From assembly GCA_021777995.1 (NCBI GenBank), contig JAJYCW010000019.1, positions 1 through 44,188 on the forward strand: 44,188 nucleotides of DNA. The letters run 5' to 3'. The DNA is from a bacterium. Its GTDB lineage: Bacteria; Armatimonadota; Chthonomonadetes; Chthonomonadales; Chthonomonadaceae. The notes under the pieces were generated by a model that worked only from the letters and a program-made list of their open reading frames with translations, was not told the DNA's origin and made no database searches. Positions 6,282 to 26,611 of this stretch are shown piece after piece. The position numbers were made by a program, and so were the translations under genes. Numbering within the stretch: position 1 is the stretch's first letter; the number at the start of each line of letters is the position of its first letter.

Positions 6282-6632
6282 GTTACCTTTCCCCATAACG
6301 GGCAGTGTTTAACACCTGGTAACAATTATGGCAGATTATTGCCTGCTTTTGAGTCGTCACTGGCCATTCGAGCGCAAATCTTCAAATACTCTAAGGAACT
6401 TGATACCTCAACCGATTTATTGCCTGGTTTTGGTGCACCGTTTCTGCCAACCGACCCTTCCTTTGGTGACTTTCGGGCAATTACTGAGCCCAACAACACA
6501 ATTTTGGTATATTTCTGGTGAATGCAATACCATTTGTGGTGAGAAGTAAGGTTTAATAGAGACCGAACATGTACCGGGTGCTTGCTCGCCCTGGTGCATT
6601 GAGATATTCCCCAAGATACACAAGGAATGAAT
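6282..6632. other. Divergent intergenic region, NlpC/P60 and GH92
   Basis: About 350 bases between divergent genes. No convincing reading frame, no copy of the ATGTTATCGATAACAT operator and no strong -35/-10 pair is visible. It must carry the promoters of the NlpC/P60 gene and of the first GH92 gene. The absence of the operator separates this GH92 gene from the regulon found further right. Confidence 0.5.
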
Positions 6633-8951
6633 ATGCAACGTTCACTGAATCATTTACTGCGGTGCAGTGTTGCCTGCGTAGCGCTCACTCTAGCGGCTTG
6701 GCAACCGGCACACGCTAGCAAGAATGCTGTACATGCACAGGCAGCAGAACCAAATTACACTGCTCGTGTAAATCCGTTTATTGGCACCGGTTCTGGCCCC
6801 GGCGGAAGCATTAACCTCTTTCCTGGCGCATCTGCACCCTTTGGAATGGTACAGATTAGCCCAGATACGGAGCCTCAGGGCTACGGATACCACTATTGGG
6901 AGCACACCATACAGGGCTTCAGCATGACTCACATGAGTGGTCCGGGCTGCAGCAATGAGGGCGATGTGTTCTTTACGGCGACCACTGGACCAGTGCACAC
7001 TCAGCTCAAGAACATTGAATCGCCGTATAGCCACTCGGACGAGAGCGCGCATCCTGGCTACTACAGTGTCATGCTGAAGCGGTGGTCTGTAGGTGCAGAA
7101 CTCACGGCTTCCACCCGCGTGGGTATGGCAAGGTTCACGTATCCAGCGGGAGTGCGAGCGAACTTCCTGGTTCCCATTAGCCACACCTTAAACTACACAA
7201 CGGGTGCAAAGGTCAGTATTGTTGGCGACAATATCATTGAGGGCTATGTCGACGATCGATGCTTTTGCGGCAGCCAACATGTGTACAGGGTGCACTACAT
7301 CATGAAGTTCAGCCAACCATTCACTAGCCACGGCACGTGGATGAATGGTGACTTCTCGCCCGATACCACCACGATGATACAGACCCACGATGACCAGTGG
7401 GACGGCGGTTATGTCCGCTGGCCGGCAACCAATGCAAAACGAATAATCACGGTCAAAATCGCAATCTCCTACGTCGATCTGGCCGGTGCACAGAAAAACA
7501 TGAACGCGGAAGCACATCATCTTTCGTTCAATGCTATGCACAAGCGTGCAACCGACGCATGGAACACAGAGTTGTCCGTGGTGGATGCCAGGGGCGGCAG
7601 CCCAACCGAGCAGCAAGTGTTTTACACAGCACTGTATCACTCGTTTCTAACACCGTGTATTTTTAATGACGTCGACGGAAGATATCTGGGGTTTGATAAC
7701 AAAGTACATCATGTCGCCACAGGGCACAACGTCTACTGCAACTTCTCAGGTTGGGACGTGTACCGGTCGCAGTTACCGCTTGTTGCTCTACTCCAACCGG
7801 CTGCGATGGCAGATATGTGCCAGTCGATTGTACTGATGTATCAACAGGGTGGTTGGATTGGTAGATGGCCACAGATCAATCACTACACGAACGTGATGTG
7901 CGGCAGTCCACTCACCACAGTGCTATGTACTGCCTGGATGGACGGCATTCACGGATTCAACATTAACGCTGCTTACAAGGGAATGTTGAAGGATGCAACG
8001 GAGGCCGCCCCTCCGGGGCACGACTACGCTGGCGAGTCTAGTATAAGCTGGATCAATAAGCTCCATTTCGTACCCGACGACAAAGAAGGCTACGGCTCCG
8101 TATCCCAAATTCAAGAGGACTGCGTAGCTTATGCCTCACTGGCATACGTCGCCCATGCACTGCACCATGACAAGGACGCCGCCATGCTTCTTAAACGTGC
8201 AGAATATGAACGGAACGTTTTTGATGCCGCTGACGGTTATTTTCGGCCCAGACTATCCAACGGGAAGTGGCGTACCCCATTTGATCCCAACCAGACGCAG
8301 GGTTATGTAGAGGGATCCGGCTGGCACTATCAGTGGTTAGCCCCCGCTGATATGTCCTGGTTGGTATCTGCAGTGGGCAAACAACGGTTTAACAACAGGC
8401 TTGAGGCGTTCTTCAGCTATCCCAAATCCCAGTGGAATGCGAAGTACTATAACCCGTACAATGAAACCGATCTGGAAGCGCCATTCGAGTTTGACTACTC
8501 GGGCAAACCTTGGCGAACACAAGCCGCGGTGCGGCGCGTACTTCGAGAGGACTATACCACCAGTCCCAACGGTGTACCTGGCAACGATGATCTTGGTGAA
8601 ATGTCGTCTTGGTGTGTTTGCAGCATGATGGGTATCTACGCAATTGACCCTGCAAGCACCACTTATGCACTTTCAACACCGGTATTTCCGAGTGTCACAA
8701 TTCACCTATCGAGGCCCTACGGTGGGAAGAAATTCACGATTTTGACCACCCCTACGGGCATCAAGGCAGTATATACCAAGGCAGTGCAGCTGAACGGGCG
8801 GCCCCTTAACGACGATTATATTACGGCAGACGAGATTACTGCAGGAGGAACCCTGCATTTCGAAGCGGCCACTTCGCCAAATCGCAAATGGGCTTCCACG
8901 GCAGCAACAGAACCGGCATCTATTGGATCTCTAACGTGGGGCAGGCACTAA
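6633..8951 (+). CDS. Secreted GH92 family alpha-mannosidase (first copy)
   Basis: Calcium-dependent exo-alpha-mannosidase of glycoside hydrolase family 92, acting on mannose-containing glycans outside the cytoplasm. 772 aa, usual for the family. A Sec signal peptide (about 1-30, SVACVALTLAAWQPAHA) precedes the N-terminal beta-sandwich (VNPFIGTGSGPGG, FPGASAPFGMVQISPD) and the (alpha/alpha)6 barrel. Conserved catalytic blocks are visible: YVEGSGWHYQW with the likely acid Glu560, and GNDDLGEMSSW with Asp652/Asp653 in the position of the general-base and calcium-site acids. The start is placed at the second ATG because AAGGA at 6622-6626 directly abuts the ATG at 6627 but is six bases from 6633. 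It is followed by a terminator and a LacI gene. Linkage specificity cannot be read from sequence. Confidence 0.93.
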   Translation: MQRSLNHLLRCSVACVALTLAAWQPAHASKNAVHAQAAEPNYTARVNPFIGTGSGPGGSINLFPGASAPFGMVQISPDTEPQGYGYHYWEHTIQGFSMTHMSGPGCSNEGDVFFTATTGPVHTQLKNIESPYSHSDESAHPGYYSVMLKRWSVGAELTASTRVGMARFTYPAGVRANFLVPISHTLNYTTGAKVSIVGDNIIEGYVDDRCFCGSQHVYRVHYIMKFSQPFTSHGTWMNGDFSPDTTTMIQTHDDQWDGGYVRWPATNAKRIITVKIAISYVDLAGAQKNMNAEAHHLSFNAMHKRATDAWNTELSVVDARGGSPTEQQVFYTALYHSFLTPCIFNDVDGRYLGFDNKVHHVATGHNVYCNFSGWDVYRSQLPLVALLQPAAMADMCQSIVLMYQQGGWIGRWPQINHYTNVMCGSPLTTVLCTAWMDGIHGFNINAAYKGMLKDATEAAPPGHDYAGESSISWINKLHFVPDDKEGYGSVSQIQEDCVAYASLAYVAHALHHDKDAAMLLKRAEYERNVFDAADGYFRPRLSNGKWRTPFDPNQTQGYVEGSGWHYQWLAPADMSWLVSAVGKQRFNNRLEAFFSYPKSQWNAKYYNPYNETDLEAPFEFDYSGKPWRTQAAVRRVLREDYTTSPNGVPGNDDLGEMSSWCVCSMMGIYAIDPASTTYALSTPVFPSVTIHLSRPYGGKKFTILTTPTGIKAVYTKAVQLNGRPLNDDYITADEITAGGTLHFEAATSPNRKWASTAATEPASIGSLTWGRH

Positions 8952-9255: not shown

Positions 9256-10284
9256 ATGGTATTACGAAGGGCAAAGTTAAAAGACGTCGCGGCTCAAGCT
9301 GGTGTCTCGATTAGCACCGCTTCAAAGGCGTTTAACAATAAGCCGCAAGTATCTCAATCAACGAAGGCACGTGTCTTCGAAGCAGCCGCAACACTTCATT
9401 TTGCACCCAACGCGCTAATTCGTACCTTGCAGTGCGGCAGCGCAAACACGATAGGTATCTGTACCTGGCCATTTAGCCTTGATAACGTAACACGTTCATT
9501 AGCCATGCATGTGATGCACGGAATTTACGAGGCTAGCAACTCCTACCGTAAAGACCTGCTGCTCTTCTCCCGGCTTCTTGAGCCCAACACCGACTCGCTG
9601 CTGCCTACGTTTATGGATGGCAGAGTGGACGGTCTCATATTGAGCCCACACGTACTATCACACCGTGACCTTACGCAACTTGCAGAAGGCGGCTTGCCCA
9701 CAGTGGTTCTGTACAACGGCGAGCTGCCAGATAATATGGGGTCTGTGCTCGTTGATAACTACAGCGGCATTCGGAGGTCAATACAGCATCTTCACTCGCT
9801 TGGGCACACGCGAATTGCGTTCCACCGACCTGGAGACACATTCGATTTTCGGCAGCGAACGGCAACCTACCGTCAGGTGGTGTCAGAACTGGGTCTTCAA
9901 TGCTCGGCGCAAATGCTGTTACTAGACGACACATTTTCTAGCGACTTAGAAAAACATTGGCATCACCTTCAATCGCTGCCAGAGCCGCCCACAGCACTCA
10001 TAGTTGGGCACGATGCCACGGCGATAGAATGGTTGGAGATGTTGAGGGCAAAAGGCGTGCAGGTGCCGGGCGATCTCTCGGTAATTGGTTTTGATGATGT
10101 ACCTGCTGCTAGTAGCCCGTATGGTTTAACAACAGTTCGTCAGGATGCAGCAGAAGTTGGTCGTCAGGCAATGCATATGCTCTGGTGGATTATGGCTGGT
10201 GAACGTCCATCGGCGTGTCGAAGAACGTTGGACGTCGAACTGATCGTACGCTCGACCACGGGTCCACCGCGCAAAGGAAAATAG
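9256..10284 (+). CDS. LacI-family transcriptional regulator (first copy)
   Basis: Sugar-responsive DNA-binding regulator of 342 aa, usual length. The N-terminal LacI helix-turn-helix (LKDVAAQAGVSISTASKAFN, about residues 8-27) is followed by the hinge region. Next comes a periplasmic-binding-protein-like effector domain with typical blocks (VDGLILSPH, HLHSLGHTRIAFHRP, DLSVIGFDDVPAA, TTVRQDAAEVGRQA). Recognition-helix residues SISTASK differ from SAMTVSR in the other LacI of the window, so different operators are expected. It has its own promoter and candidate operator, and lies between the GH92 gene and the DUF1559-lipoprotein pair, its most likely targets. The effector is unknown. Confidence 0.93.
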   Translation: MVLRRAKLKDVAAQAGVSISTASKAFNNKPQVSQSTKARVFEAAATLHFAPNALIRTLQCGSANTIGICTWPFSLDNVTRSLAMHVMHGIYEASNSYRKDLLLFSRLLEPNTDSLLPTFMDGRVDGLILSPHVLSHRDLTQLAEGGLPTVVLYNGELPDNMGSVLVDNYSGIRRSIQHLHSLGHTRIAFHRPGDTFDFRQRTATYRQVVSELGLQCSAQMLLLDDTFSSDLEKHWHHLQSLPEPPTALIVGHDATAIEWLEMLRAKGVQVPGDLSVIGFDDVPAASSPYGLTTVRQDAAEVGRQAMHMLWWIMAGERPSACRRTLDVELIVRSTTGPPRKGK

Positions 10285-10410: not shown

Positions 10411-11316
10411 ATGCATCGCAACTCGTCTCGTGTTAAAGCCGACACACAGAATGCAGCTGGTCGCCGCAGCGCATTCACGCTTATAGAACTGTTAGTAGTA
10501 ATTGCTATCATTGCAATTCTTGCCGCAATACTTTTCCCTGTCTTTGCGCAGGCCCGTGAAAAGGCGAGAGCCATCACCTGCATCTCAAATATGAACCAAA
10601 TTACACTTGCAACCCTAATGTACGTTCAGGACTACGATGAGTCGTTCTGTAATGAGGGGGTAGCCGGGCCAACGAACGGCTGGGGCTGGCAAGACACGTG
10701 GCTGGTAGAAACCCAGCCTTATATTAAGGACTATAACGCCCTGCGGTGTCCCGACGACTCTCACTACACGCCCACTGGCTCGGGACCGGCATTCAGCTAC
10801 GCGGCAAATGGAAACTTCTGCTGGACCGGCACGTGGTCACTCTGCGGTCTGATTAATCCCGCACGAACCTGGTGTAGCGACTATGCACTGGCAGTAAGTG
10901 ATGCGTCGGTTAATTTCCCTGCGGAGACAATTCTGTTCTCGGAGAGGCGTACTATGGGCCCCAACTCCTGGATGTACCAGCAGGACAACGGTGGGATTCA
11001 GGGCGCCTTTAGCCCCTGGGCCACTGTAATTATTGGTGACGATGGCGTGGATGCTGGCAACCAGCTTCCCGGTCAGGCTGGCGGCATGGATAACGGACAG
11101 TTCACGGTTGGAGTGGACGGAACGTGGAAACCTGCGGATCCAAACTCCACGGGTACTGTTGGCCTGCACAATGGATTTGGTAACTTCGCCTTTGCCGATG
11201 GCCACGTTAAGGCTATGATCCCTCAGCAGACCGTGAATCCAGATCCAAGTATCGGAAACACCTGCACCAGCCCGTTCCTGAAAATGTGGGATCGTACTCG
11301 CACCACATCAAACTAG
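10411..11316 (+). CDS. DUF1559 prepilin-like protein (first copy)
   Basis: Type IV pilin/pseudopilin-like protein of 301 aa with the DUF1559 architecture found in large families in Planctomycetes and Armatimonadota. After a basic leader (residues 1-21) comes the prepilin motif [19 protein letters not shown], where peptidase cleavage and N-methylation are expected. The following block is [13 protein letters not shown]. The C-terminal part is a secreted globular domain ending in the family signature FADGHVKAM. The residue before FTLIE is Ala instead of the canonical Gly, which could slow processing. AGGAG precedes the ATG. It is followed after 10 bases by a small lipoprotein gene, an arrangement repeated at 20445-21516. 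The molecular function of DUF1559 is not established. Confidence 0.92.
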
Positions 11317-11906: not shown

Positions 11907-12206
11907 GGACCACCGAGTGTGGTCCCACCAGCAACACGGTGGCATCGTTTTCGGGCAATACTTACTATAGCCCGAGCCCCTAAGCCTGATAATATCGTTC
12001 GATAGGATCATTTCGGTGTTATGTTCGATAGGAACGACGACGGTACGGTGAGATCAAAAATGCAGGCTTGCTTCTTGCCGCCGCAGCAGAGAAGGTTTGC
12101 CGTTCTCCAACAAGGTTTCCCCAAACGCAACTTTCTGCAAAAGTGCGTAACAGTCGCACGAAATGATGAGTTATCGCGGCCCACATAAGGTCATTACCTC
12201 GTGGGC
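11907..12206 (+). promoter_or_regulatory. Long structured leader of GH2 operon
   Basis: Several stem-loops follow the operator in succession: GGACCAC/GTGGTCC (11907-11925), CCACC/GGTGG (11925-11942) and TCGGGC/GCCCGA (11951-11975). The 11-base direct repeat GTTCGATAGGA occurs at 11997-12007 and 12023-12033. A final hairpin GCCCAC/GTGGGC (12179-12206, inner stem AGGT/ACCT) buries a potential GTG start at 12201. No known riboswitch class is recognised. The frames read through this region lack protein-like features, so I treat it as a leader RNA or regulatory DNA. The stretch 11608-11852 before the promoter holds nothing I can identify. Confidence 0.35.
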
Positions 12207-12251
12207 ATAGAAATACCAGACCTGATCGTAGGCGGAACACGAATTAGCCAA

Positions 12252-15200
12252 ATGCAATTTTCAACTCAATCGCATAGTACTCTGCAGTGGCTGTGGCGCC
12301 ATACGATGCTTGTATCGGCTATGATTGCCACCCTGGTGGGAGCTTCCTATGCTCAGGCAGCGCCATTCCCTACCGAGTTCAACTTATCAACTGGATGGTC
12401 GATGCAGGACGCACACCTGGTGAGACAGCCCGGAAAGGTTGTTTCTACAGAGCGGTACTTTCCGGCGACACACTGGTATCCCGCTGTGGTGCCAGGTACC
12501 GTTCTTACCACGCTGGTTGCAGATGGGGTGTACCCAGAACCGTTATATGGGCTCAACAGTCTACCGAGTGTCATTCCAGACTCGCTCTGCCGAACCGCTT
12601 ACTGGTACCGCACCGTTTTTACGCTGCCGATTAGCTATTTGCATCGTCAGGTGTTTCTTACCTTTAATGGCATCAACTACCAGGCTAGAATATGGGTTAA
12701 CGGTAGACGCGCAGGTTCTGTTACGGGTGCCTTTAGGCGCGGAATATTTAACGTCGCCAAACTGGTTGTGCCGGGTGCCAAGAATGTTCTTGCCGTAGAG
12801 ATACTGCCCCCCTTCCAGCCAGGGCATCCAGCTATTCAGACTCTTGGAAAGGGATACGGCCCAAATGGTGGTGTGATTGAGGGCAATACCCCCACCTTTT
12901 TTGATACGATTGGCTGGGACTGGATGCCAGGGATAGCCGACAGAGATATGGGAATCTGGCAAAGCGTCACAGTCCATGCTACCGGTCCTGTTATAATCGA
13001 GCATCCGTACGTTACAAGCCAAATTACCTTTGCAAGGGTTAATCATGCTGTTATCACTGTTCAAGCAACCGTCCGCAATGAAACGGGTAACCCTCAAATT
13101 GGACAGTTAACAGGTACGTTAGCAGGTAGAACGTTTGAGTCATCCACCGTCTCGCTGCCAGGTTTTGCAGCAAGAACTCTAACATTTACCGCCAGCAAGT
13201 TTCCTGCCCTCTACCTGCGATCACCCCATTTATGGTGGCCAAACGGCTACGGGGCACACACTCTGTACCATCTCACGCTCAAATTTGCGCAACGTCACTC
13301 TCTAAGTGACCGCCGTGTTGTTCCATTTGGCATCCGGTCAATTTCCTACGGCTTGAACCAGGGTACCCATACCCTAAAGATTGCTGTTAACCACGTGCCT
13401 ATCATGATAAGAGGTGGCGATTGGGGCATGGATGAGGCCATGAAGCGCACGTCGGAGGCTCGCCTTAACGCCCAGATCAAGCTGAACGCTGAAGCCGGAT
13501 TTACTATGATAAGGAACTGGTGCGGCCAAACCACCCAGGAAGACTTTTATCGCCTGTGCGACAAATATGGCATTCTTGTGTGGAACGACTACTGGCTTGA
13601 CGACACCGTACATTATGGCATTGCACGGCAACGCAATGTATTCCTTGCAAACGCGAAAGACATGCTGTATCACTATCGCAATCACCCGTGCATAGCCGTT
13701 TGGTGTGAAAAAAACGAATTTCCAGTGGGTCCCCCGTTTGAAAGTGGTTTACGGCTAATTACAAAATCCCTAGACCCTAGCCGCTTACTTCAGGCTTGCT
13801 CATCTAGTGGCGATGGTGTTGGTGACGGATATTACGGCATTGAACCCGTCAGCTTTTACTTTAAGAAGCGCCCGGACGTGTTTCACACAGAGACGGGTGC
13901 CCCTTCCATCCCGACGCTACAGGATATTCATGCCATGATGCCGAAGCGCGACTGGAACACATTCAATGATGACTGGACGGAACACGACATGTGCCAGTAC
14001 AATTATCAGGAGGCGCTCGCTTCGCGGTACGGCCCCATTACTGGGACCGCGGATTTTGTGCGCAAAGCCCAACTCGCAGACTACGAAACGTACCGTGCGA
14101 TCTTCGAGGGTGCCAACGCTCGAATGTTAAATCCCTATACTGGCATCATGATATGGATGAGTAACCCTGCGCAACCCAGTATGGTGTGGCAAATTTATTC
14201 ATATTACCTGGAACCTGACTCCGCCTATTTTGCAGTAAAACGCGCCTGTGAGATGATACATGTGCAGATGAGTCCCACCGGTCAGGTCGCCGTCATTAAC
14301 AATACCGCGCGCAATCTACACAAATTGGATGTAGAGGCGCAGGTTTACAATTTGAATGGCAGCCTTTCGAGCACCCAGAAGGACCTAGTGTCTGCTAAGG
14401 CGCTTTCAGCCACCTATGGTATGCAGATCGTTTGGAACTCGGACATGTCCCCGGTAACCTTTGTACGCCTCACCCTTCGATCCCGCGAAGGTAGTGTGAT
14501 ATCGCGCAACTTCTACTGGCATAACAGTACTAAAAAGAGCGAAGACTACCGCGACTTGCAATCAATGCCGCATACCATTGTGTCGATTAACGGCATTAGT
14601 AAGCGTGTTGGTAGCTCTGAAGTGATCAAGCTTTCAGTAACTAACCCAGGTGGCGCTGTTGCACTGCTTACCCACCTTCAGGTGCGTAGCAGCACTTCCG
14701 GTAAGCGCATCCTGCCCGCATATTACAGTACTAACTACTTTTCACTCGTGCCTGGCGAACGGCGTGCCGTGACCATTCGAGTTGCGAAGAAGCTATTGGG
14801 TAACGCGCTGCCACTAATCGTTGTTGACGGGTGGAACGTCACCTGTCGGCGTAATTACTACCCCACGTTATGGGTTGCCCCAGACAAGTCCACAGGCTTT
14901 GCACATACAGAACAGATACAGAATATCGACTGCGGTGTGGGTTGGCTGCCAGGCTATAGCGCGGACTGCTATTTCCATGGCGGAAACCAGGAGGCCTGTG
15001 ATGAGACCGTCACGACCGTAGACACACCGCTTGCCGCACCCGCTATTCTCTACCGCACGGACCGCCACGGTCCTTGTAACTACCGGATACCCGTCGGCAC
15101 CCGGCACACCTACACCATACTTCTCCACTTCGCCGAAACTTACTACACCGCACCGAACGAACGCGTCTTCAATGTACTCATAAACGGGAAGACGGTACTG

Positions 15201-15404
15201 AGAAATTTTGATATCTTTAAAGCCGCGGGCGGCAAAAACAGGGCATTGGTAGAGAAATTTACCGATGTACGGTCGGAGAATGGTGAAGTTAACATACGGT
15301 TTGAAAATGGTAAAGTGGACCAACCTACCATATGTGGTATTCAGGTAATTCCCCAACCAGTTACGCCGTTACCAAAGCGCGAGGATCTTCATGCTCACCA
15401 ATAA
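12252..15404 (+). CDS. Secreted GH2 beta-mannosidase-type enzyme with malectin domain
   Basis: Retaining beta-glycosidase of family 2, most like beta-mannosidases, acting outside the cytoplasm. 1050 aa from the ATG at 12252. A signal peptide (about 1-37, ending ASYAQA) leads to the sugar-binding jelly roll and Ig-like domains. The TIM barrel carries WCEKNE with acid/base Glu489 and FHTETGAPSIP with nucleophile Glu547. After further beta domains, residues 888 to about 1040 form a malectin-type carbohydrate-binding domain (IQNIDCGVG, YTILLHFAETY, FNVLINGKTVL, CGIQVIP). A GTG at 12201 would add 17 residues but sits in a stable hairpin, so I prefer 12252; the ribosome binding site there is weak. 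The next gene overlaps its end by 14 bases. Substrate could also be another equatorial beta-glycoside. Confidence 0.9.
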   Translation: MQFSTQSHSTLQWLWRHTMLVSAMIATLVGASYAQAAPFPTEFNLSTGWSMQDAHLVRQPGKVVSTERYFPATHWYPAVVPGTVLTTLVADGVYPEPLYGLNSLPSVIPDSLCRTAYWYRTVFTLPISYLHRQVFLTFNGINYQARIWVNGRRAGSVTGAFRRGIFNVAKLVVPGAKNVLAVEILPPFQPGHPAIQTLGKGYGPNGGVIEGNTPTFFDTIGWDWMPGIADRDMGIWQSVTVHATGPVIIEHPYVTSQITFARVNHAVITVQATVRNETGNPQIGQLTGTLAGRTFESSTVSLPGFAARTLTFTASKFPALYLRSPHLWWPNGYGAHTLYHLTLKFAQRHSLSDRRVVPFGIRSISYGLNQGTHTLKIAVNHVPIMIRGGDWGMDEAMKRTSEARLNAQIKLNAEAGFTMIRNWCGQTTQEDFYRLCDKYGILVWNDYWLDDTVHYGIARQRNVFLANAKDMLYHYRNHPCIAVWCEKNEFPVGPPFESGLRLITKSLDPSRLLQACSSSGDGVGDGYYGIEPVSFYFKKRPDVFHTETGAPSIPTLQDIHAMMPKRDWNTFNDDWTEHDMCQYNYQEALASRYGPITGTADFVRKAQLADYETYRAIFEGANARMLNPYTGIMIWMSNPAQPSMVWQIYSYYLEPDSAYFAVKRACEMIHVQMSPTGQVAVINNTARNLHKLDVEAQVYNLNGSLSSTQKDLVSAKALSATYGMQIVWNSDMSPVTFVRLTLRSREGSVISRNFYWHNSTKKSEDYRDLQSMPHTIVSINGISKRVGSSEVIKLSVTNPGGAVALLTHLQVRSSTSGKRILPAYYSTNYFSLVPGERRAVTIRVAKKLLGNALPLIVVDGWNVTCRRNYYPTLWVAPDKSTGFAHTEQIQNIDCGVGWLPGYSADCYFHGGNQEACDETVTTVDTPLAAPAILYRTDRHGPCNYRIPVGTRHTYTILLHFAETYYTAPNERVFNVLINGKTVLRNFDIFKAAGGKNRALVEKFTDVRSENGEVNIRFENGKVDQPTICGIQVIPQPVTPLPKREDLHAHQ

Positions 15405-17412
15405 ACACACACGCCGTATTGCACAGCGCTACGTGGCAGCACTTCTCGTAATCGCAGCCTGCATGATAGCCGCAACAGCAGAACGAGCCGCGGCAACACC
15501 GGCCCAGTACTTTAAAATCACTGTGGTGGATGCAGCCACGCGACGAGGTGTTCCGCTTGTGGAGCTACGAACAGTGAACCACATTCGTTACTACACCGAT
15601 AGTAACGGTGTCGTAGCCATAGACGATCCAGACCTACTGGGTCACTCCATATACTTTCATGTATCAAGCCCCGGTTATACCTATCATAAGGACGGGTTTG
15701 GTTACAGTGGCATTGCGCTAAAGGTAGTTGCAGGGCAAAGTGCCACTATTGCCGTAAAGCGACGAAATATTGCGCAGCGTCTTTACCGCATGACAGGCGC
15801 CGGAATATACCGTGACAGCATCCTAACGGGGGAAGCGACGCCGTTGAAGTACCCACTGCTCGATGGCAAGGTCATGGGCCAGGATACGGTGGAAGTGACG
15901 CCCTACAACGGCCGTATATATTGGTTTTTTGGTGATACTCAACGGCCCTCTTATCCCCTTGGCCAATTTGCAACGTCCGGTGCCACATCAAGACTGCCTG
16001 CTAACGGCGGCCTGAATCCTTCACTGGGCGTAAACCTGAATTATTGGGTAGGAAAAGACGGCTTTAGTCGGCCCATGATTGACGTACATAATCCACCCGG
16101 CCCGGTTTGGGTTGGCGGACTCTTCACACTGAAGGTAAATGGGCAGACGCATCTGTTTACCAATTTCGCAGAAGTAAGGCACGATGGGTCGATTGCAAAA
16201 GACGGTCTGGCTGAATTTGACGATAAGCAGGCAGTATTCGTGCCGGTGTGTACTTTTCCGTCCGGCAATGGTCTACGACCAGAGGGCCACCCCTTCCAGG
16301 TAGTCGAACATGGAGTACAGTACCTCTATTTCCAATCAACAGCCATGGGTGCGTTTCCACTGGTGAGGGTGAGGGCAAATCTTAAGGATGTAATGAACGC
16401 TGCGAGTTATGAATCATACACGTGCCTTAAACCAGGCGACACATATGACGGCACTAAAACATTACTTCAGCGAGCAAAGAATGGAGCACTGGTGTGGGGT
16501 TGGAAAAAGAATACAATGGCGCTTGGTGAAGATCAAGCTAACAAACTGGTAGCCGCAGGCATCATGAAAGCCGACGAGCGCATAACGTGCCTGCACGATA
16601 TTACTAACAATGATGAAGTGCTTTCACACGGTGGTTCGGTATATTGGAGTCCCTATCTTAAGCGCTGGATCATGATCACCACACAGGCGTTCGGTTCACC
16701 CTCTTTCCTGGGTGAAGTCTGGTTCGCCGAGGCGGATACCCCAGTCGGTCCCTGGGCGTATGCTGTCAAGATTGCTACACACGGTGGATACACGTTCTAT
16801 AATCCCACTCAGCTGCCTTTTTTTGATCAGAAGAAGGGACGGCTAATCTACTTTCAAGGTACCTATACCAATACCTATTCCAATGTTACAGACATTACCC
16901 CTCGGTACAACTACAATCAGCTCATGTATAGCCTCAACCTTGCAAATCCTCGTTTAATGCTTCCGCAACCGGTGTATCAGGTACGTGTAAACGACGCACA
17001 TTCTCAATATGTACAACGTGCTGATCTTGCACACAATAACCTGTGGAAGGATGTGGTCTCCATTCCATTCTACGCCATGCCGCGTAACAGCGGTTTACAA
17101 GGTCTCATACCGGTTTATGAGGTTTTGCACCAACCAGGCAGCAGTTCAATTGAGACACTGGAGACTGAACGCCCCGAAGGGAACGCGACCCCCGTTTTTT
17201 ATGGGCTTCCGGCAGGCACGAAGCCAACTGGTGCCACGATTCCTCTCTACGCCTACACAAACACTGCCACTGGCCGGCACTGGTATGCAGCCTCAAACGG
17301 AAAAGACGTGCGAAATGTCTCTCGCTCGGCACAGCCGGTTTGCGTGGTCTGGAAGAATCCAAGTATTGCGGTCGCGCTCGACCGAGGCGCAAAGCAGGTA
17401 AGCATGCCGTGA
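15391..17412 (+). CDS. Secreted beta-propeller protein, possible glycoside hydrolase
   Basis: 673 aa, unassigned. The signal peptide (about 1-35, ending AERAAA) is followed by a transthyretin/carboxypeptidase-regulatory-like beta domain (about 38-125: FKITVVDAATRRGVPLVELRT). A large middle part (about 130-520) has repeated Trp/Tyr-rich strands such as GRIYWFFGDTQRPSYP, WVGGLFTLKVNGQTHLF, GSVYWSPYLKRWIMIT and GEVWFAEADTPVGPW. These are typical of five-bladed propellers in the GH43/GH117 and DUF4185 groups. The C-terminus (about 565-660) has IPVYEV and IPLYAYTNTATGRHWYAA, resembling the DUF5648 repeat. It overlaps the GH2 gene by 14 bases (translational coupling) and shares its promoter and operator, so a role in the same glycan pathway is likely. 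Catalytic acids cannot be assigned. Confidence 0.75.
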   Translation: MLTNKHTRRIAQRYVAALLVIAACMIAATAERAAATPAQYFKITVVDAATRRGVPLVELRTVNHIRYYTDSNGVVAIDDPDLLGHSIYFHVSSPGYTYHKDGFGYSGIALKVVAGQSATIAVKRRNIAQRLYRMTGAGIYRDSILTGEATPLKYPLLDGKVMGQDTVEVTPYNGRIYWFFGDTQRPSYPLGQFATSGATSRLPANGGLNPSLGVNLNYWVGKDGFSRPMIDVHNPPGPVWVGGLFTLKVNGQTHLFTNFAEVRHDGSIAKDGLAEFDDKQAVFVPVCTFPSGNGLRPEGHPFQVVEHGVQYLYFQSTAMGAFPLVRVRANLKDVMNAASYESYTCLKPGDTYDGTKTLLQRAKNGALVWGWKKNTMALGEDQANKLVAAGIMKADERITCLHDITNNDEVLSHGGSVYWSPYLKRWIMITTQAFGSPSFLGEVWFAEADTPVGPWAYAVKIATHGGYTFYNPTQLPFFDQKKGRLIYFQGTYTNTYSNVTDITPRYNYNQLMYSLNLANPRLMLPQPVYQVRVNDAHSQYVQRADLAHNNLWKDVVSIPFYAMPRNSGLQGLIPVYEVLHQPGSSSIETLETERPEGNATPVFYGLPAGTKPTGATIPLYAYTNTATGRHWYAASNGKDVRNVSRSAQPVCVVWKNPSIAVALDRGAKQVSMP

Positions 17413-17655: not shown

Positions 17656-20427
17656 CTAGGCAGAAACAGCCCGGACTTTCCAGGCGGCGAGGTTGGCAGC
17701 GGAGTCTGGGCTGCCAACCGAAGGGGTAACCTGCACTAGAATATAACCATCTGCTGCAGGCCTGAGCGGCTGAATGAAATGAACCTCACCGCCGGTTTTA
17801 GCGGTTGGCCGAAAATCGCGCAGTACCGTGAGGCCGTTTACTGTCACATTCATCGTTCCGTTCGAGCGTGGTGCTGCAAAGTGAAGGTCCAGGGCGTAAG
17901 CTTCCCCATCGGCCGGCATAGGCAGCGGTATCCGGTAATAAAACGTACCTTGTCGTTGCGTATCCAATATGCCTGCGGGATTGGTATTGGTTTGAACAGG
18001 CTCACCACCTGTTCCGTAGCAATCTGCAACATAGTCGGTGATCTCCGCACCACCGCAGTTAACCGCCACCTGAAGTGGAATGTCGTCTGTCATTGGCGTC
18101 TCCGTACCGTATGGCGACATGGATGGTGGCAGATCCAGCACACTTATTCGCCGCTTGAGAGGGCGCAACGCCATTTCAAATTGCAGGTCTCCACCGTTCA
18201 CCAGATCAGCATGGGTAATCCACAGCCGGTTCTGAAGATGCCCATTCAGTCTTACGCTTCGCACATAAGGTGAGTACTCGCTGGTATTGGGTGCGTTGAT
18301 GATCAGTTTTTTACCGCCCCGCAAGGTCACCTCCGCTCGTGGAAAGAGTGGTGAAGTAAATACGTAGGATGGTCGTCCGGGGCAGTGTGGAAAGATACCC
18401 AGAGCTGCAAGAACGTACCAGGCAGACATCTCTCCGTTGTCCTCATCACCAGGGAATCCGTCGGGTGAATAGAGTTCATTAAGCACCCTGCGTGACCAGT
18501 ATTGCAGACGGGCAGGGCAGCCCGCAGCCACATAATGGGCCATCACCTGATGAACCGGTTGATTTCCCTGGTCATACTGGCCAAACGGCACTGCTGCCAT
18601 TTCTGCCATCTCGTGGATGACACCACCATACCCCCCGACGTGAAAGACTGGCCGCTGCCAGAATAGGTGATCGAGTTTGCGCACCATCGCAGCTTGACCG
18701 CCCAGCAGCTTCATTAAACCCGCGGGATCGTGCGGAACCGAAAGCGACCACTGCCACGGACCGCCCTCGGTGTATGCATCACCCCAGGCGTACTGGTCAA
18801 ACGGTTCTACAAAAGTACCATCCGCATTCTTCGGACGCATAAATCCCGTGACAGGATCATACAACAATCGATAGTTCAGGGCGCGTTTTGATAGAATGGT
18901 GTGCTGTTTCACATTCCCAAGCCGCTGTGCCGAAAGTGCTATACACGCATCGTCATACGCATAGTCGAGAGTGTTGGACACCACTGCACCTGTTTTGCCG
19001 TGGGGTAGGTAGCCGTTTGCAAGGTAGTCCTGCAGATCAGGTCGGCCGTCTCCGTGGCCATTCGGCGGCACAGAGGCGTCCGCCCACATCGCATCAAAGG
19101 CACCCTTGTGGTCAAAACCAGGGATATTCTTCATAATTGCGTCTGTGATGACTACATCACTGTGCGTCCCTCCCATGGTACCGTGATACCCAGGGTGCGG
19201 CCACTGCGGGAGCCAGCCACCTTCGTGAAACGCATTGATAAAGCCCTGAACCATCTCTCCCAGCCGTTCAGGCTGCAGTATGGATAGTAGAGGGTACTGC
19301 GTATGGTAGCCATCCCACAAGCCAGTATCCGTGTACATTACCCCCTCATGGATCTTGCCATCGAATGGGCTGTAGTAGATAGTCCGGCCGTTTACCCCAG
19401 GCTCATGAAACATTCGCGGGTACAGATTTGTGCGGTACAGACAGCTATAAAACGTTTTGCGCTGTCGTATTGTGCCACCGGTTACCTTCACTACGCCCAG
19501 TGTGTCGTTCCATACCTTTCGCGCACCTGCCCGCACCGCATCGAAGGAGCGGCTGCCAAGCTCGTGGCTGAGGTTGAACTTTGCCTGCTCTACACTAATA
19601 AAAGAGGTAGCCACTCTTACAATTGCCGTGCGCAAGGTACCAAACTCAGCGACCGCACCCACGCCCTGGCCTGTTAGCTCCATTTGTCCTGCAATGGGAT
19701 TCTCATCGTGGAACACTTCGGCAGAAATAAATGGGTGATCCGATACCGCTGCAAAATAGCAAGCGGCCGTGTCCGAGCCGGCGTATCCCATCCTGGAGTA
19801 GCCAGTAATCGTGCGATTGTCTGGCTCAATCTTCACCTGAGATTGGGTATCGAGAATGAAGCGACCATTGGACCCGGAAGGGAAAGTAAACCGGAAAATC
19901 GCACAGTGCTCTGTTGGAGCGACCTCTAAGCGTACGCCGTCCCGCTTTAAGAGGACTGAAAAGTAGTCTGGTCCTGCGTGGAAGTCTGCGGGTAGGTAGG
20001 TGGACACGCGATCCTTAGGAAGCAGCGACCGCTCCCCTGCCTGGGCCATTACCGTACAGTGGCCGTAATCACCCATCCATGGGCTCGGCTGGTGCGTAGC
20101 TCGAACTCCCTGTAACGTGTGCGCCGTGGGGTCAAAAAACCAGCCGTCACCTGTTTTGTTCTGAGGTGTCCAGTTGGACATGCCGAATGGGGCGCTTATG
20201 AGAGGGAGCGTATTTCCGTGGGAAAAGGTCCAGACGGAGTTGGTTCCCTGCATTACATTAACCAGGTCCACCAGGTCTCCCGAATAGCCTTGGTGACCGT
20301 CGGCAGCAGCCGTTCGGACTCCAACGCTCTCTAGTCCTGACAGACTCACGACGCCGAGCATTCCCTGCACTACTCGACGTCGTGAGATCCCCTGTTTAGC
20401 TCTCCTTTTCGGCTTTTGAAAACGCAT
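17656..20427 (-). CDS. Exported GH92 family alpha-mannosidase (second copy) with C-terminal binding domain
   Basis: 923 aa, longer than the first GH92. The N-terminus (KQGISRRRVVQGMLGVVSLS) has a twin-arginine motif, suggesting export by Tat in folded form. The GH92 sandwich and barrel follow, with YTEGGPWQWSL carrying the likely acid Glu554 and GDEDNGEMSAWYV carrying Asp661/Asp663 at the base and calcium positions. After about residue 770 an extra beta-rich module (QVAVNCGGAEITDYVADCY, YALDLHFAAP, MNVTVNGLTVLRDF) resembles a malectin-type domain, related to that of the GH2 enzyme. AGGAG precedes the ATG. It lies 17 bases after a small lipoprotein gene and closes the DUF1559-lipoprotein-GH92 operon controlled by the double operator at 21599-21661. 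Confidence 0.93.
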   Translation of the reverse strand: MRFQKPKRRAKQGISRRRVVQGMLGVVSLSGLESVGVRTAAADGHQGYSGDLVDLVNVMQGTNSVWTFSHGNTLPLISAPFGMSNWTPQNKTGDGWFFDPTAHTLQGVRATHQPSPWMGDYGHCTVMAQAGERSLLPKDRVSTYLPADFHAGPDYFSVLLKRDGVRLEVAPTEHCAIFRFTFPSGSNGRFILDTQSQVKIEPDNRTITGYSRMGYAGSDTAACYFAAVSDHPFISAEVFHDENPIAGQMELTGQGVGAVAEFGTLRTAIVRVATSFISVEQAKFNLSHELGSRSFDAVRAGARKVWNDTLGVVKVTGGTIRQRKTFYSCLYRTNLYPRMFHEPGVNGRTIYYSPFDGKIHEGVMYTDTGLWDGYHTQYPLLSILQPERLGEMVQGFINAFHEGGWLPQWPHPGYHGTMGGTHSDVVITDAIMKNIPGFDHKGAFDAMWADASVPPNGHGDGRPDLQDYLANGYLPHGKTGAVVSNTLDYAYDDACIALSAQRLGNVKQHTILSKRALNYRLLYDPVTGFMRPKNADGTFVEPFDQYAWGDAYTEGGPWQWSLSVPHDPAGLMKLLGGQAAMVRKLDHLFWQRPVFHVGGYGGVIHEMAEMAAVPFGQYDQGNQPVHQVMAHYVAAGCPARLQYWSRRVLNELYSPDGFPGDEDNGEMSAWYVLAALGIFPHCPGRPSYVFTSPLFPRAEVTLRGGKKLIINAPNTSEYSPYVRSVRLNGHLQNRLWITHADLVNGGDLQFEMALRPLKRRISVLDLPPSMSPYGTETPMTDDIPLQVAVNCGGAEITDYVADCYGTGGEPVQTNTNPAGILDTQRQGTFYYRIPLPMPADGEAYALDLHFAAPRSNGTMNVTVNGLTVLRDFRPTAKTGGEVHFIQPLRPAADGYILVQVTPSVGSPDSAANLAAWKVRAVSA

Positions 20428-20748: not shown

Positions 20749-21516
20749 CTAGTTGAAGCTTGGGTAAGTCTGCGCATAGTTAAGATTAGTATAGCCCTTA
20801 CTTTGAGGATCTGTGGCACCGTGACTAGTGAAACTGGATCCGTCAATGGTCCACATATTCGTATCCGCAGCTCCCCCATCCTGCTTATCGAGGGTCTGAA
20901 GCGGCCGCAGCGATTTCACATGGCCATCCAGGAACCAGAAATTTGCATGCCCGTTGTGCCCCGCAAACATCAAGCTTCCAGGACCATCCCACGTGATGCC
21001 CCAGTAAGGCGCCGTAGTTACGCGATAGTCACTATACGCACCCTCAAATTCCACCACTCCCACTGTTTCAGATGGCTGTGTGAGCTGCGCGAGCGTAGCC
21101 GAGCTTGGGCACGGTCCACCCCACCAACCATTACAGTCTATAAATGGCTGAAGCAGTGGATTGCCGTTCCCGGAGTCGGTATTAGCAGCATAATTAGCTG
21201 GAAAACTGGAACCATCTGCATCTAGCCCCCGATAGGGATCCGACGGGCACTGCCATACTTGATGCGACTTAACATAAGGATTGATGTAGGTCTTCCAGTT
21301 TACCGTGGGCTCATTTTTTCGATTTGGCAGAACCTCGTCATTGTCCTGCACATACATCATGATCGCCAGCCCGATCTGGTTTTCATTGCTTATGCACATC
21401 GCCTGCCGTGCCTTCTCTCTTGCCTGTGCGAATACCGGAAAAAGAATTGCTGCGAGAATTGCAATAATTGCAATTACAACCAAAAGCTCTATGAGCGTGA
21501 AACCCGATCGTTTCAT
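20749..21516 (-). CDS. DUF1559 prepilin-like protein (second copy)
   Basis: 255 aa from the ATG at 21516, chosen because AAGGGGACC lies upstream and the product begins [14 protein letters not shown], a classical prepilin N-terminus with Gly before the cleavage site. The hydrophobic helix continues into [15 protein letters not shown]. The globular part contains [17 protein letters not shown]-like segments of the DUF1559 family and ends in the signature FLDGHVKSL. It is the first gene of the operon DUF1559-lipoprotein-GH92, behind a promoter with two LacI-type operators. Expected location is the cell envelope, anchored by the N-terminal helix or assembled as a pseudopilin. Biochemical role unknown. 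Confidence 0.93.
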
Positions 21517-21598
21517 AGTAAGGGTCCCCTTAAAATGACAGTGTGGAGTGTGCACCTAGATGCAGATGCCCACTGAACTGGGAGTTAGCACGAGAAAT

Positions 21599-21705: not shown

Positions 21706-23550
21706 TTAGCGCCTGCTCGCCAATTTGTTGGTTCTAGGATCCTCTATTGGTGCAGATCCTTCCTGAAGCCAGTAGAATTTGTCGGCTGCTAAACCCTCAT
21801 GATGCTGCACGCGTCCAGACGGCCACCGCACTACTAGCGAGATCACTCTTGCTGCGTTCCCCAGGCCAAATGTAAGCCGCATATCACTGTGTGAGCAGTA
21901 ACTGGACCCACTTCGAACCCACTGGGTCTGTCTGCCTCCCACGGTGGCAATAGTCACCTTCGTTCCAACAGCGTCGCGATTACACTTCACGCCCTCCAGC
22001 CGAAGCGTAAGCCAGTGATTCTGATTGCCTCCATCATTCCGAAATAATGAGAGTGGTCCTAGCTCCGAAACCATCGCAATATCCACATCCCCATCATTGT
22101 CGAAATCGCCCACTGCAAGCCCTCGGGTAACGCGGGGTTGTACAAGGTCACCTAGTGACCGGTCATCCTGAAGGAAGGTTCCGTTTCCCTCGTTGTGAAG
22201 CAGCAACTGGCTTTGGGCGAACGTTTCACCATCGACCGTTGCCTTGGCTACCATGGGTGAGACATGACCGTTCCCAATCACTACATCCTGCCAGCCATCA
22301 AGGTCGTAATCGAAGCATTCCAGCCCAAATCCCAGATACTGCATGTTGTCAGCCGACAGTCCCGAGGCCTGTGAATTGTTCAGAAATGTACGACCGGTAT
22401 CCTCCAGCACTGTTTTGGCTTCTCCCGCATAGTTCACGACAAAGAGATCCGGTCGTCCGCTGTGCAGGTAGTCACTTACGCCTATCCCCATGCTGGCGGT
22501 GGCATGACCCATTTTATCGTAAGCAGCTCCTAACTCCACCGCCACGTTCGTGAACGTGCCATTGCGGTTGTTGTGAAACAGGAAATCGGCCATGGTATCG
22601 TTCGAGACAAACAGATCTGGCCAGCCGTCGTCGTCGTAATCAAACCATACTGCAGAAAGGCTTTTGCCCCATTGACCAAGCAGGTTTGCGCCTGCAGTTA
22701 CATCGGTGAACGTACCATCACCGTTGTTGTGGTACAGGCAACAGTGGCTAGGCGGAAACTGCATAGGTGCGGGAAATTGGCCGAGAGTATCTTCACGGTC
22801 CATCTCAGGCGACCATTGGCAGTAGTGGCATACAAACAGGTCCAGGTACCCATCATTGTCGTAATCCGCCCAGGCAGAACTTGTGGGCCACGTTGGGTGC
22901 GCCTTAATGCCTGGTATTAACCGGTCCGCAACACCGGCCTCTTCGGTGACGTCCGTAAAGGTGCCGTCACCGTTGTTTCGAAACAGGTGATTACCGCCAA
23001 TTGCCGTAATGTATAGGTCTAACCAGCCGTCATTGTTGTAGTCTGCTACAGAAACACCCTGCCCGTAGCCTGTGGGACCTGCCAATCCTGCTTCCCTTGT
23101 GACATCTGCAAAAGTACCATCGCCATTATTGCGGTAGAGCACGTTCTGCGTACTGTAAGCACCAGGCAATTCTGATGCCCCAGGCAGTGGACCGCCCTGA
23201 ACTGCAAATATATCTAACAGGCCGTCGTTGTTGTAATCCCACAGTGCAACGCCACCCCCCGTCTGAACAATGAAGGGCTCGCGTGTACCCGCACTGTTGT
23301 GCGCACCATTGTTGAACTGCCAGGTGATACCTGCTGCCTTTGAGATATCCGTGAACCGGATTGGCACTGATGCAATTTGCCTACTTGCAGCCGCAACTCG
23401 AGAATCAATGACCGTAGCGACCTTTGGCGTTAGCACGTTCCTGCTACTGCGTGCAAGATAACGGCAGCCCGCGAGCGCTGCACTGGCGGCGGTGACCAGA
23501 AAGGTTCGCCGACCCAAAGTAGCGGGCCGAGTCTGTGAGCTTCGCTCCAC
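21706..23550 (-). CDS. CRTAC1-type FG-GAP/VCBS repeat protein with ASPIC/UnbV domain
   Basis: Exported beta-propeller protein of 614 aa. The N-terminus has a twin-arginine motif and an adjacent lipobox (GRRTFLVTAASAALAGC), so a Tat-exported lipoprotein is likely. Seven calcium-binding-loop repeats follow, for example DYNNDGLLDI, DYDNDGYLDL, DYDDDGWPDL and DFDNDGDVDI; the fifth (DYLHSGRPDL) is degenerate. The C-terminal ASPIC/UnbV domain (about 515-595) includes RDAVGTKVTIATVGGRQTQWVRSG and VVRWPSGRVQ. The start is GTG at 23550, directly abutting the TAG of the lacI gene, so translation is coupled to that regulator. Family members are common in secreted glycan and adhesion contexts, but activity is unproven. 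Here it is probably co-regulated with lacI by the operator at 24622. Confidence 0.9.
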   Translation of the reverse strand: MERSSQTRPATLGRRTFLVTAASAALAGCRYLARSSRNVLTPKVATVIDSRVAAASRQIASVPIRFTDISKAAGITWQFNNGAHNSAGTREPFIVQTGGGVALWDYNNDGLLDIFAVQGGPLPGASELPGAYSTQNVLYRNNGDGTFADVTREAGLAGPTGYGQGVSVADYNNDGWLDLYITAIGGNHLFRNNGDGTFTDVTEEAGVADRLIPGIKAHPTWPTSSAWADYDNDGYLDLFVCHYCQWSPEMDREDTLGQFPAPMQFPPSHCCLYHNNGDGTFTDVTAGANLLGQWGKSLSAVWFDYDDDGWPDLFVSNDTMADFLFHNNRNGTFTNVAVELGAAYDKMGHATASMGIGVSDYLHSGRPDLFVVNYAGEAKTVLEDTGRTFLNNSQASGLSADNMQYLGFGLECFDYDLDGWQDVVIGNGHVSPMVAKATVDGETFAQSQLLLHNEGNGTFLQDDRSLGDLVQPRVTRGLAVGDFDNDGDVDIAMVSELGPLSLFRNDGGNQNHWLTLRLEGVKCNRDAVGTKVTIATVGGRQTQWVRSGSSYCSHSDMRLTFGLGNAARVISLVVRWPSGRVQHHEGLAADKFYWLQEGSAPIEDPRTNKLASRR

Positions 23551-26585: not shown

Positions 26586-26611
26586 AGGTGTGTACTCCCT
26601 CATTGAAAGGT

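What the first reader, a model, noticed from the sequence alone, without database searches (positions are those of the whole stretch)
15391..17412. Secreted propeller protein that may be an undescribed glycoside hydrolase
It overlaps and is probably translationally coupled to a GH2 enzyme under a sugar-responsive operator. It has a propeller-like core similar in style to GH43/GH117, but I cannot match it to a characterised family. The combination of transthyretin-like N-terminal, propeller and DUF5648-like C-terminal domains is unusual.
Basis: partly seen in the sequence, partly recalled or inferred. Interest (0 to 1): 0.55.

Follow-up and report, generated by a model that had tools for sequence, protein, structure and literature searches.

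The report
Unannotated propeller enzyme related to GH183
A secreted bacterial protein with no family name turns out to belong to a large, separate sister group of the enzymes that cut mycobacterial cell-wall arabinan; it keeps their two catalytic residues, so it is probably a sugar-cutting enzyme of a new family with an unknown target.

Summary
In detail: 15391-17412(+) is a real 673-aa protein with a signal-peptide-like start that overlaps the GH2 gene by 14 nt; three close genomes encode 69-70% identical proteins. Structure prediction (pLDDT 93) plus fold comparison places residues 123-523 closest to the GH183 endo-D-arabinanase EndoMA1 (Z 26.8, 301 aligned; GH32, GH43 and sialidase rows 17.1 or less). 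Profile-profile comparison with DUF4185/GH183 gives probability 97.2%, E 3e-11. The GH183 nucleophile (D33) and acid/base (D51) align with D165 and D182, invariant in 75 of 75 rows. The third essential acid of EndoMA1 (E243) is opposite an Asp (D408) in the window but an acid in only 7 of 75 rows; its partner R198 has no counterpart. The protein fails the Pfam DUF4185 cut-off (14.3 of 39.5 bits), and its family splits from 31 sampled DUF4185 rows on one 100/100 branch. The family is large (576 relative-encoding stretches, capped, in a one-genome-per-species scan) and unnamed in Pfam and NCBIfam. Best reading: a secreted retaining glycosidase of a sister family of GH183, substrate unknown. GH2/GH92 neighbours hint at a mannose/glucosamine glycan for this clade only. 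The 'sugar-responsive operator' was not supported. New variant of a known kind.

The parts
15391..17412 (+). 673-aa secreted propeller protein (the finding)
   Evidence: ORF; homologs; AF2 model pLDDT 93.0, pTM 0.91
15381..15384 (+). GAGG Shine-Dalgarno-like string, 6 nt before the ATG; the same GCGAGGAT string precedes the gene in G002
15391..15498 (+). Signal peptide (residues 1 to about 36)
   Evidence: basic start then hydrophobic helix 5-30 in the model; read from sequence, no signal-peptide program was run
15511..15762 (+). N-terminal all-beta domain (residues 41-124), present in 74 of 74 aligned homologs
15766..16962 (+). Beta-propeller of GH183 type (residues 126-524)
   Evidence: VIA Z 26.8 to 8hhv; hhalign prob 97.2 E 3e-11
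15883..15885 (+). D165, aligned with the GH183 nucleophile (EndoMA1 D33); 75 of 75 rows
15934..15936 (+). D182, aligned with the GH183 acid/base (EndoMA1 D51); 75 of 75 rows
16597..16614 (+). D403 (acid in 75 of 75 rows: D 74, E 1) to D408 (aligned with EndoMA1 E243, but an acid in only 7 of 75 rows)
16714..16716 (+). E442, family-specific acid (74 of 75 E; G, A, R, N, K most often in DUF4185), candidate third pocket carboxylate
   Evidence: role inferred
16780..16803 (+). H464 to N471 stretch: H464 75 of 75, Y470 75 of 75 (aligned with EndoMA1 Y293), N471 74 of 75
16813..16857 (+). L475 to Q489: His and Glu respectively in 71 of 75 rows, changed to Leu and Gln in the window's own clade
16963..17409 (+). 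C-terminal accessory all-beta domain (residues 525-673), DUF5648-like; absent in 9 of 74 homologs
12201..15404 (+). GH2 enzyme with malectin domain, nearest solved relative exo-beta-D-glucosaminidase 2vzo; upstream operon partner
17656..20427 (-). GH92 (alpha-mannosidase family), convergent neighbour
6627..8951 (+). second GH92 gene of the cluster
9256..10284 (+). LacI-family regulator of the cluster

Best explanation
A secreted glycoside hydrolase of a separate family, sister to GH183. Shown: the predicted fold is that of GH183, and residues aligned with the GH183 nucleophile and acid/base aspartates are both present and invariant (D165, D182). Inferred: it cleaves a glycosidic bond by double displacement with retention, D165 attacking the anomeric carbon and D182 giving and taking the proton; Y470 stacks on the sugar as Y293 does in EndoMA1. 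Inferred: the substrate is not, or not only, D-arabinan, because R198, which holds the sugars at subsites -2 and -3 in EndoMA1, has no counterpart and its partner acid E243 is not kept across the family, while D403, E442, H464 and N471 are. In this genome it is probably made with a GH2 enzyme, beside two GH92 mannosidases, so it probably opens or trims a mannose/glucosamine-containing glycan outside the cell; the exact linkage is unknown.
For: AF2 model pLDDT 93.0, pTM 0.91 from 75 rows. VIA: EndoMA1 8hhv Z 26.8 (rmsd 3.2, 301 aligned, 18% identity) and its D51N mutant 26.6 rank first, then 4hbs (uncharacterised) 23.6, M. tuberculosis AraH2 8an0 18.5, GalNAc deacetylase 6n1a 18.3, then GH32/GH159/sialidase/GH43 at 17.1 or less. 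hhalign against an 11-member DUF4185 set: probability 97.2, E 3e-11, 265 columns; 97.4 and E 1.4e-11 for the propeller with EndoMA1 added. A GH183 HMM hits 54 of 74 family members and 0 of 25 other window proteins at E up to 0.001 (first run at E up to 10, same counts). D165 with D33 and D182 with D51 in hhalign and in three MAFFT runs, two of which gave the same columns; D at both in 75 of 75 rows. D33 and D51 as catalytic pair, retention, and the roles of E243 and R198: PMC10509167 (section 8 and passages); retention and two essential Asp in PMC10115798 (passages). That paper also found a third conserved carboxylate, E381 of DgGH4185b, not essential ('broadly retained'); whether E381 is the equivalent of E243 I did not check. 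GH2 directly upstream in the window, G002 and G005.
Against: In EndoMA1 the third acid was essential (E243A and E243Q nearly dead); the aligned position here is an acid in only 7 of 75 rows (K in 44), although the window itself has D408 there. No coordinates were available, so a shared pocket is inferred from alignment. In the window's own clade two otherwise nearly invariant residues are changed (H475 to L, E489 to Q), so this copy may have altered or lost activity. Surroundings of the family are not conserved: apart from the family, no ORF cluster recurs in more than 9 of 80 loci; by tblastn a Gfo/Idh/MocA oxidoreductase like the one at 39160 is in 12 of 80 loci. The GH92 association seen in Armatimonadota (8 of 13 with against 6 of 48 without) is absent in Planctomycetota (3 of 35 against 15 of 211, p 0.73). 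The window protein alone hits DUF4185 only at E 0.025. Foldseek by itself ranked a GH43 entry first.
Confidence: 0.66

Rival explanations
1. It is simply a divergent GH183 endo-D-arabinanase that cuts D-arabinan or a D-arabinofuranose-containing glycan such as lipoarabinomannan, with the GH92 enzymes removing mannose.
For: Nearest fold and profile are GH183; catalytic pair kept; in the window itself an Asp (D408) aligns with the third acid E243; alpha-mannosidase-family genes beside it; GH172 genes in 60 of 61 genomes including this one.
Against: R198 has no counterpart, and the E243 position is an acid in only 7 of 75 family rows; separate branch of 2.76 changes per column with 100/100 support; below the Pfam cut-off. 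GH172 is nearly universal in these genomes, so its presence says nothing.
Confidence: 0.16
2. A propeller enzyme that is not a hydrolase of glycosidic bonds, for example a sugar deacetylase like the F. plautii GalNAc deacetylase (metal dependence recalled, from no call).
For: 6n1a is fifth by fold (Z 18.3); the family has several conserved His/Glu/Asn residues that could hold a metal (H300 65 of 75, H464 75, H475 71, E442 74, E489 71, N471 74).
Against: GH183 is 8 Z units nearer, and both catalytic Asp are in place; no residue-level match to 6n1a could be made here; H475 and E489 are lost in the window's clade.
Confidence: 0.08
3. A secreted carbohydrate-binding or structural protein, or an enzyme that has lost activity in this clade, serving the GH2/GH92 system as an adaptor.
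For: H475L and E489Q in the window clade; accessory N- and C-terminal all-beta domains.
Against: D165, D182, D403, E442, H464 and Y470 remain intact in the window clade; strong conservation across phyla.
Confidence: 0.1

Closest known systems
GH183 / DUF4185 endo-D-arabinanases (EndoMA1 8hhv; AraH2 8an0; DgGH4185b)
   Same: Propeller fold over about 300 aligned residues; nucleophile and acid/base Asp; stacking Tyr (Y293/Y470); secreted, with extra beta domain(s)
   Different: R198 has no counterpart; E243 position is an acid in 7 of 75 rows only (D408 in the window); below the Pfam cut-off; about 400-residue propeller with inserts, plus an N-terminal domain in all 74 aligned homologs; separate branch; 58 of the 80 best loci are Planctomycetota, whereas the papers report GH183 mainly from Actinobacteria
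BACOVA_04882 (4hbs), putative hydrolase of Bacteroides ovatus
   Same: Best fold match outside the EndoMA1 entries, Z 23.6, 314 aligned, 14% identity
   Different: No sequence-level hit; 2 papers name it; the one whose passage I saw calls it a hypothetical protein, the other I saw as a listing only
GH43 / GH32 enzymes
   Same: Propeller architecture; GH43 catalytic base at the place of the EndoMA1 nucleophile (PMC10509167)
   Different: About 10 Z units further away; the GH43 general acid Glu is placed differently from the GH183 acid/base
F. plautii GalNAc deacetylase (6n1a)
   Same: Fold, Z 18.3

Membership tests
GH183 (DUF4185) | Match to the DUF4185 profile above its curated cut-off | tested here: not met
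   14.3 bits against 39.5 for the window protein. 42 of 75 family rows match at E up to 0.1, best 1.7e-6; bits of the other rows were not printed
GH183 (DUF4185) | Catalytic-domain propeller fold | tested here: met
   VIA Z 26.8 to 8hhv, 301 aligned
GH183 (DUF4185) | Nucleophile Asp33 and acid/base Asp51 (EndoMA1 numbers) | tested here: met
   D165 and D182 by MAFFT, 75 of 75 rows, and by hhalign
GH183 (DUF4185) | Third active-site carboxylate Glu243 | tested here: inconclusive
   Both programs put the window's D408 opposite E243, but the column is an acid in 7 of 75 family rows and K in 44, in a gapped loop; D403 and E442 are conserved acids nearby in sequence or on the propeller. DUF4185 rows have E there in 21 of 31
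GH183 (DUF4185) | Arg198 that holds the sugars at -2 and -3 | tested here: not met
   Gap in hhalign; window A318, gap in 22 or 23 of 26 family rows by MAFFT. Only 13 of 31 DUF4185 rows have R there, so it marks EndoMA1-like members rather than the whole family
GH183 (DUF4185) | Groups within DUF4185 proteins on a tree | tested here: not met
   26 family rows against 31 DUF4185 rows: one branch, 100/100, length 2.76; unrooted, so a position as sister or as a long internal branch cannot be told
GH183 (DUF4185) | Endo-D-arabinanase activity with retention | not testable with these tools
   needs enzyme assay
GH43 | Match to the GH43 profile | tested here: not met
   Window protein no hit at E up to 0.5; 2 of 75 rows at E up to 0.1, best 0.0097
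GH43 | Propeller fold of GH43 | tested here: met
   Foldseek rank 1 is a GH43; VIA Z up to 16.8, i.e. the broad fold only
GH117 | Fold match to GH117 entries | tested here: inconclusive
   no row named GH117 among the 50 listed, which does not exclude it
GalNAc deacetylase (6n1a type) | Catalytic residues of the deacetylase | tested here: inconclusive
   Fold Z 18.3; residues not compared
DUF5648 (C-terminal domain) | Match to the DUF5648 profile | tested here: inconclusive
   3 of 59 C-termini, best 7.5e-5; window none

The most novel reading that the evidence does not exclude
A large, so far unnamed glycoside hydrolase family, mostly in Planctomycetota with members in Armatimonadota, Verrucomicrobiota, Sumerlaeota and others, that shares the catalytic aspartate pair of GH183 but has rebuilt its substrate site (third acid taken over by E442 or D403, with H464 and N471) and acts on a glycan other than D-arabinan. 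The window's clade went further, losing H475 and E489 while its gene came to lie beside a GH2 gene.
Probability: 0.42. Interest if true: 0.6.

Novelty: new variant of a known kind. Interest (0 to 1): 0.43.

Why it matters
If true, it adds a whole family of secreted glycosidases, in phyla known for degrading complex polysaccharides (recall), that Pfam and NCBIfam do not name. In the two papers I read passages of, GH183 acts on D-arabinan; a sister family with the same catalytic pair but a different sugar-holding site would show what sets substrate choice in this fold, and gives named residues (D165, D182, D403, E442, H464, N471) to test.

Tried and rejected
Sequence search against solved structures found nothing (window alone, best E 0.11, unrelated; profile of 13 homologs, best 0.016, unrelated). 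NCBIfam, PADLOC and PHROGs: no family for the window protein. Viral contigs: none of 2 pattern matches was a relative. Plasmids: no match. Canonical DUF4185 in the window's own genome: none at E up to 1.

GH172 as a D-arabinan marker: present in 60 of 61 genomes, hence uninformative. GH92 as a partner: associated in Armatimonadota (8 of 13 against 6 of 48, p 7.6e-4; outside the window's taxonomic family 4 of 6 against 5 of 38, p 0.011; not corrected for relatedness; G012, below the cut-off, counted as without), not in Planctomycetota (p 0.73). I therefore do not claim a mannan substrate for the family.

Gene surroundings: 782 ORFs of 120 aa or more in 80 loci, clustered by BLAST; after the family itself the widest cluster is in 9 loci. 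tblastn of 25 window proteins: a Gfo/Idh/MocA oxidoreductase in 12 of 80 loci, the others in at most 2. A Pfam scan of 68 close same-strand neighbours, picked by eye from 256 listed, gave at most 4 members per Pfam family. Five loci (L042, L050, L066, L067, L095) gave no family ORF in my simple ORF caller and are missing from that list.

C-terminal domain: no Foldseek match at E up to 0.001, one weak VIA row (9uj0, Z 7.2), so its fold is left open. GH117 does not appear in the listed rows; that proves nothing. Operator: 15 matches with up to 3 mismatches against 14.2 expected by chance, though the two upstream of GH2 are exact; not found in front of GH2 in G002 and G005.

I mended this, and for that reason lowered the best explanation from 0.68 to 0.66 and the novel case from 0.45 to 0.42, and raised the GH183 rival from 0.14 to 0.16.

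Rows dropped: 6 of 80 loci (L041, L048, L060, L072, L082, L092) because the match range holds a stop or a frame change; L035 and L084 (of 60 candidates) left out of the C-terminal alignment A5; in the tree 26 of 75 family rows were used, and two DUF4185 pieces under 200 residues (L124, one piece of L107) and L130 (no hit) were left out. The 80 loci are the best-scoring of 576 and so lean to the window's closest and longest relatives.

Literature: searches listed no paper whose title or abstract start concerns this family. DUF4185 together with Planctomycet: 0 papers. PMC10115798: abstract and passages and section 14. PMC10509167: abstract and passages and section 8. All others seen as search listings only. 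CAZy itself could not be searched, so I cannot say that CAZy does not already list some members. Lipoarabinomannan as a target in combination with GH92 is my inference.
Full report
What is there. The ORF at 15391-17412(+) is a 673-aa protein with an ATG start. Its first 36 residues look like a signal peptide (read by eye). It overlaps the GH2 stop codon by 14 nt; a GAGG string at 15381-15384 precedes it. 13 of 61 genomes, the window's own included, match at E up to 0.001; three others encode 69-70% identical proteins in open frames of 679-709 aa. The organism is very probably an Armatimonadota bacterium: G007 and G014, of the same family as the window's genome, hold contigs of the same length and match as L056 and L045, titled uncultured Chthonomonas. 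The cluster GH92 - LacI - pilin - GH2 - this gene - GH92 is kept in G002, GH2 and this gene in G005, this gene and GH92 in G001, where the contig begins at this gene. The gene overlap is not kept: the GH2 stop lies 18 nt before the ATG in G002 and 10 nt before the nearest ATG in G005. Co-transcription with GH2 is therefore likely; strict translational coupling is only possible.

The surroundings. GH2 has its nearest solved relatives in exo-beta-D-glucosaminidase (2vzo, E 1.5e-65) and then beta-mannosidases; the two GH92 proteins match solved alpha-1,2-mannosidases. The claimed sugar-responsive operator in front of GH2 is not supported. There is an exact direct repeat, GTTCGATAGGA at 11997 and 12023, but it is not a palindrome, and its core was not seen in front of GH2 in the two relatives examined.

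What the protein is. Pfam gives only DUF4185 far below its cut-off for the window protein (E 0.025, 14.3 of 39.5 bits). NCBIfam gives nothing. An alignment of the window protein with 74 of 80 loci found in one scan of species genomes was folded: pLDDT 93.0, pTM 0.91. Foldseek ranked GH43 and related propellers first with modest scores. The structural aligner, on 994 of Foldseek's 1000 best chains, put EndoMA1 of GH183 first (Z 26.8, rmsd 3.2, 301 aligned, residues 123-523, 18% identity), then its D51N mutant, the uncharacterised 4hbs (23.6), AraH2 of M. tuberculosis (18.5) and a GalNAc deacetylase (18.3); GH32, GH159, sialidase and GH43 rows follow at 17.1 or less.

Test of homology with GH183 by sequence. 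Eleven DUF4185 proteins from genomes of the same phylum were aligned. One of them matches EndoMA1 at E 1e-82, and the printed alignment shows that D33 is the Asp of TDLG and D51 the Asp of FGDT (numbering checked). hhalign of the two alignments gives probability 97.2 and E 3e-11 over 265 columns. A GH183 HMM hits 54 of 74 family members and 0 of 25 other window proteins at E up to 0.001. The family is thus a true relative.

The active site. PMC10509167 (section 8) reports that D33 is the nucleophile, D51 the acid/base, E243 the third essential acid that holds R198, which holds the sugars at -2 and -3, and Y293 a stacking residue. By MAFFT (three runs, two with identical columns) and by hhalign D33 pairs with D165, D51 with D182 and Y293 with Y470; each of the three is the same residue in 75 of 75 family rows. 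The DUF4185 rows have D at the D33 column in 20, 20 and 27 of 31 rows and D at the D51 column in 30 of 31. R198 has no counterpart. E243 falls opposite D408 of the window in both programs, but that column is an acid in 7 of 75 family rows and K in 44, in a loop with gaps; so in the family as a whole it is not kept, and for the window alone the matter is open. Conserved acids that could serve instead are D403 (D in 74 of 75, E in one) and E442 (74 of 75), besides H464 (75 of 75) and N471 (74 of 75), positions at which DUF4185 rows mostly differ. Which of them lines the pocket could not be tested without coordinates. In another GH183 a third conserved carboxylate was not essential (PMC10115798, passages), whereas EndoMA1 needed its own.

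A separate family. A maximum-likelihood tree of 26 family rows (of 75), 30 DUF4185 rows and EndoMA1 puts the family on one branch with 100/100 support and a length of 2.76 changes per column. Long branches can mislead placement, and the tree is unrooted, but the split itself is clear. With the Pfam cut-off failed, R198 absent and the E243 position not kept across the family, I do not file it as GH183. It works like GH183, as far as the catalytic pair shows.

How common it is. At E up to 1e-20 it occurs in 38 of 291 genomes of the window's phylum and 35 of 246 genomes of the phylum of Singulisphaera acidiphila, mostly once per genome (G072 and G160 have two long copies; many other double rows are pieces of one gene). 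All 74 aligned homologs have the N-terminal domain; 9 of 74 lack the C-terminal domain, and in all 9 the gene ends within 12 residues of the match. The C-terminal domain folds on its own with pLDDT 89.6; 3 of 59 such domains hit DUF5648, and no solved fold matches well.

What it acts on. The neighbours in this clade suggest a glycan with mannose and perhaps glucosamine. In the window's phylum the family and GH92 occur together more than expected (8 of 13 against 6 of 48, p 7.6e-4), but four of the eight are one close clade, and in Planctomycetota there is no link (3 of 35 against 15 of 211, p 0.73). Family-wide gene surroundings are not conserved. The substrate stays open. The window clade is also unusual in carrying L475 and Q489 where 71 of 75 rows have His and 71 of 75 have Glu; the same pair of changes is in all four clade members, not in the next nearest relatives L019-L022, so the window protein may differ from the rest of the family.

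Verdict. The closest characterised family is GH183. It belongs to a discrete sister family with a conserved catalytic pair and an unknown substrate.

Noticed in passing
window 16813-16857 (L475, Q489): Two nearly invariant family residues (His and Glu, 71 of 75 rows each) are both changed in the window's four-genome clade, in which the gene lies beside GH2 and/or GH92.
   Followed up: partly
G046:C412 (1323-2042 and 4736-6289) and G087:C1 (4853338-4853730 and 4857660-4859588): A gene over the DUF4185 cut-off lies about 3-4 kb from the family member in two genomes of the phylum.
   Followed up: no
window 11997-12033: Exact direct repeat GTTCGATAGGA x2, 26 nt start to start, about 170-200 nt before GH2; function unknown.
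   Followed up: partly
L097-L108, L112-L131 and rows: DUF4185 proteins are common in the window's phylum (47 of 201 genomes over the cut-off) and fall into several deep branches, most of them far from EndoMA1.
   Followed up: partly
window 10411-11316 and 20749-21555: Two pseudopilin-like proteins flank the sugar cluster: the first has Pfam N_methyl and DUF1559 hits; the second was judged by its similar start.
   Followed up: no
window 24768-26603 and 27454-28839: Two ORFs of 611 and 461 aa without any Pfam match at E up to 0.001.
   Followed up: no
window 21706-23550: FG-GAP / ASPIC-UnbV repeat protein next to a second LacI regulator (23551-24600).
   Followed up: no
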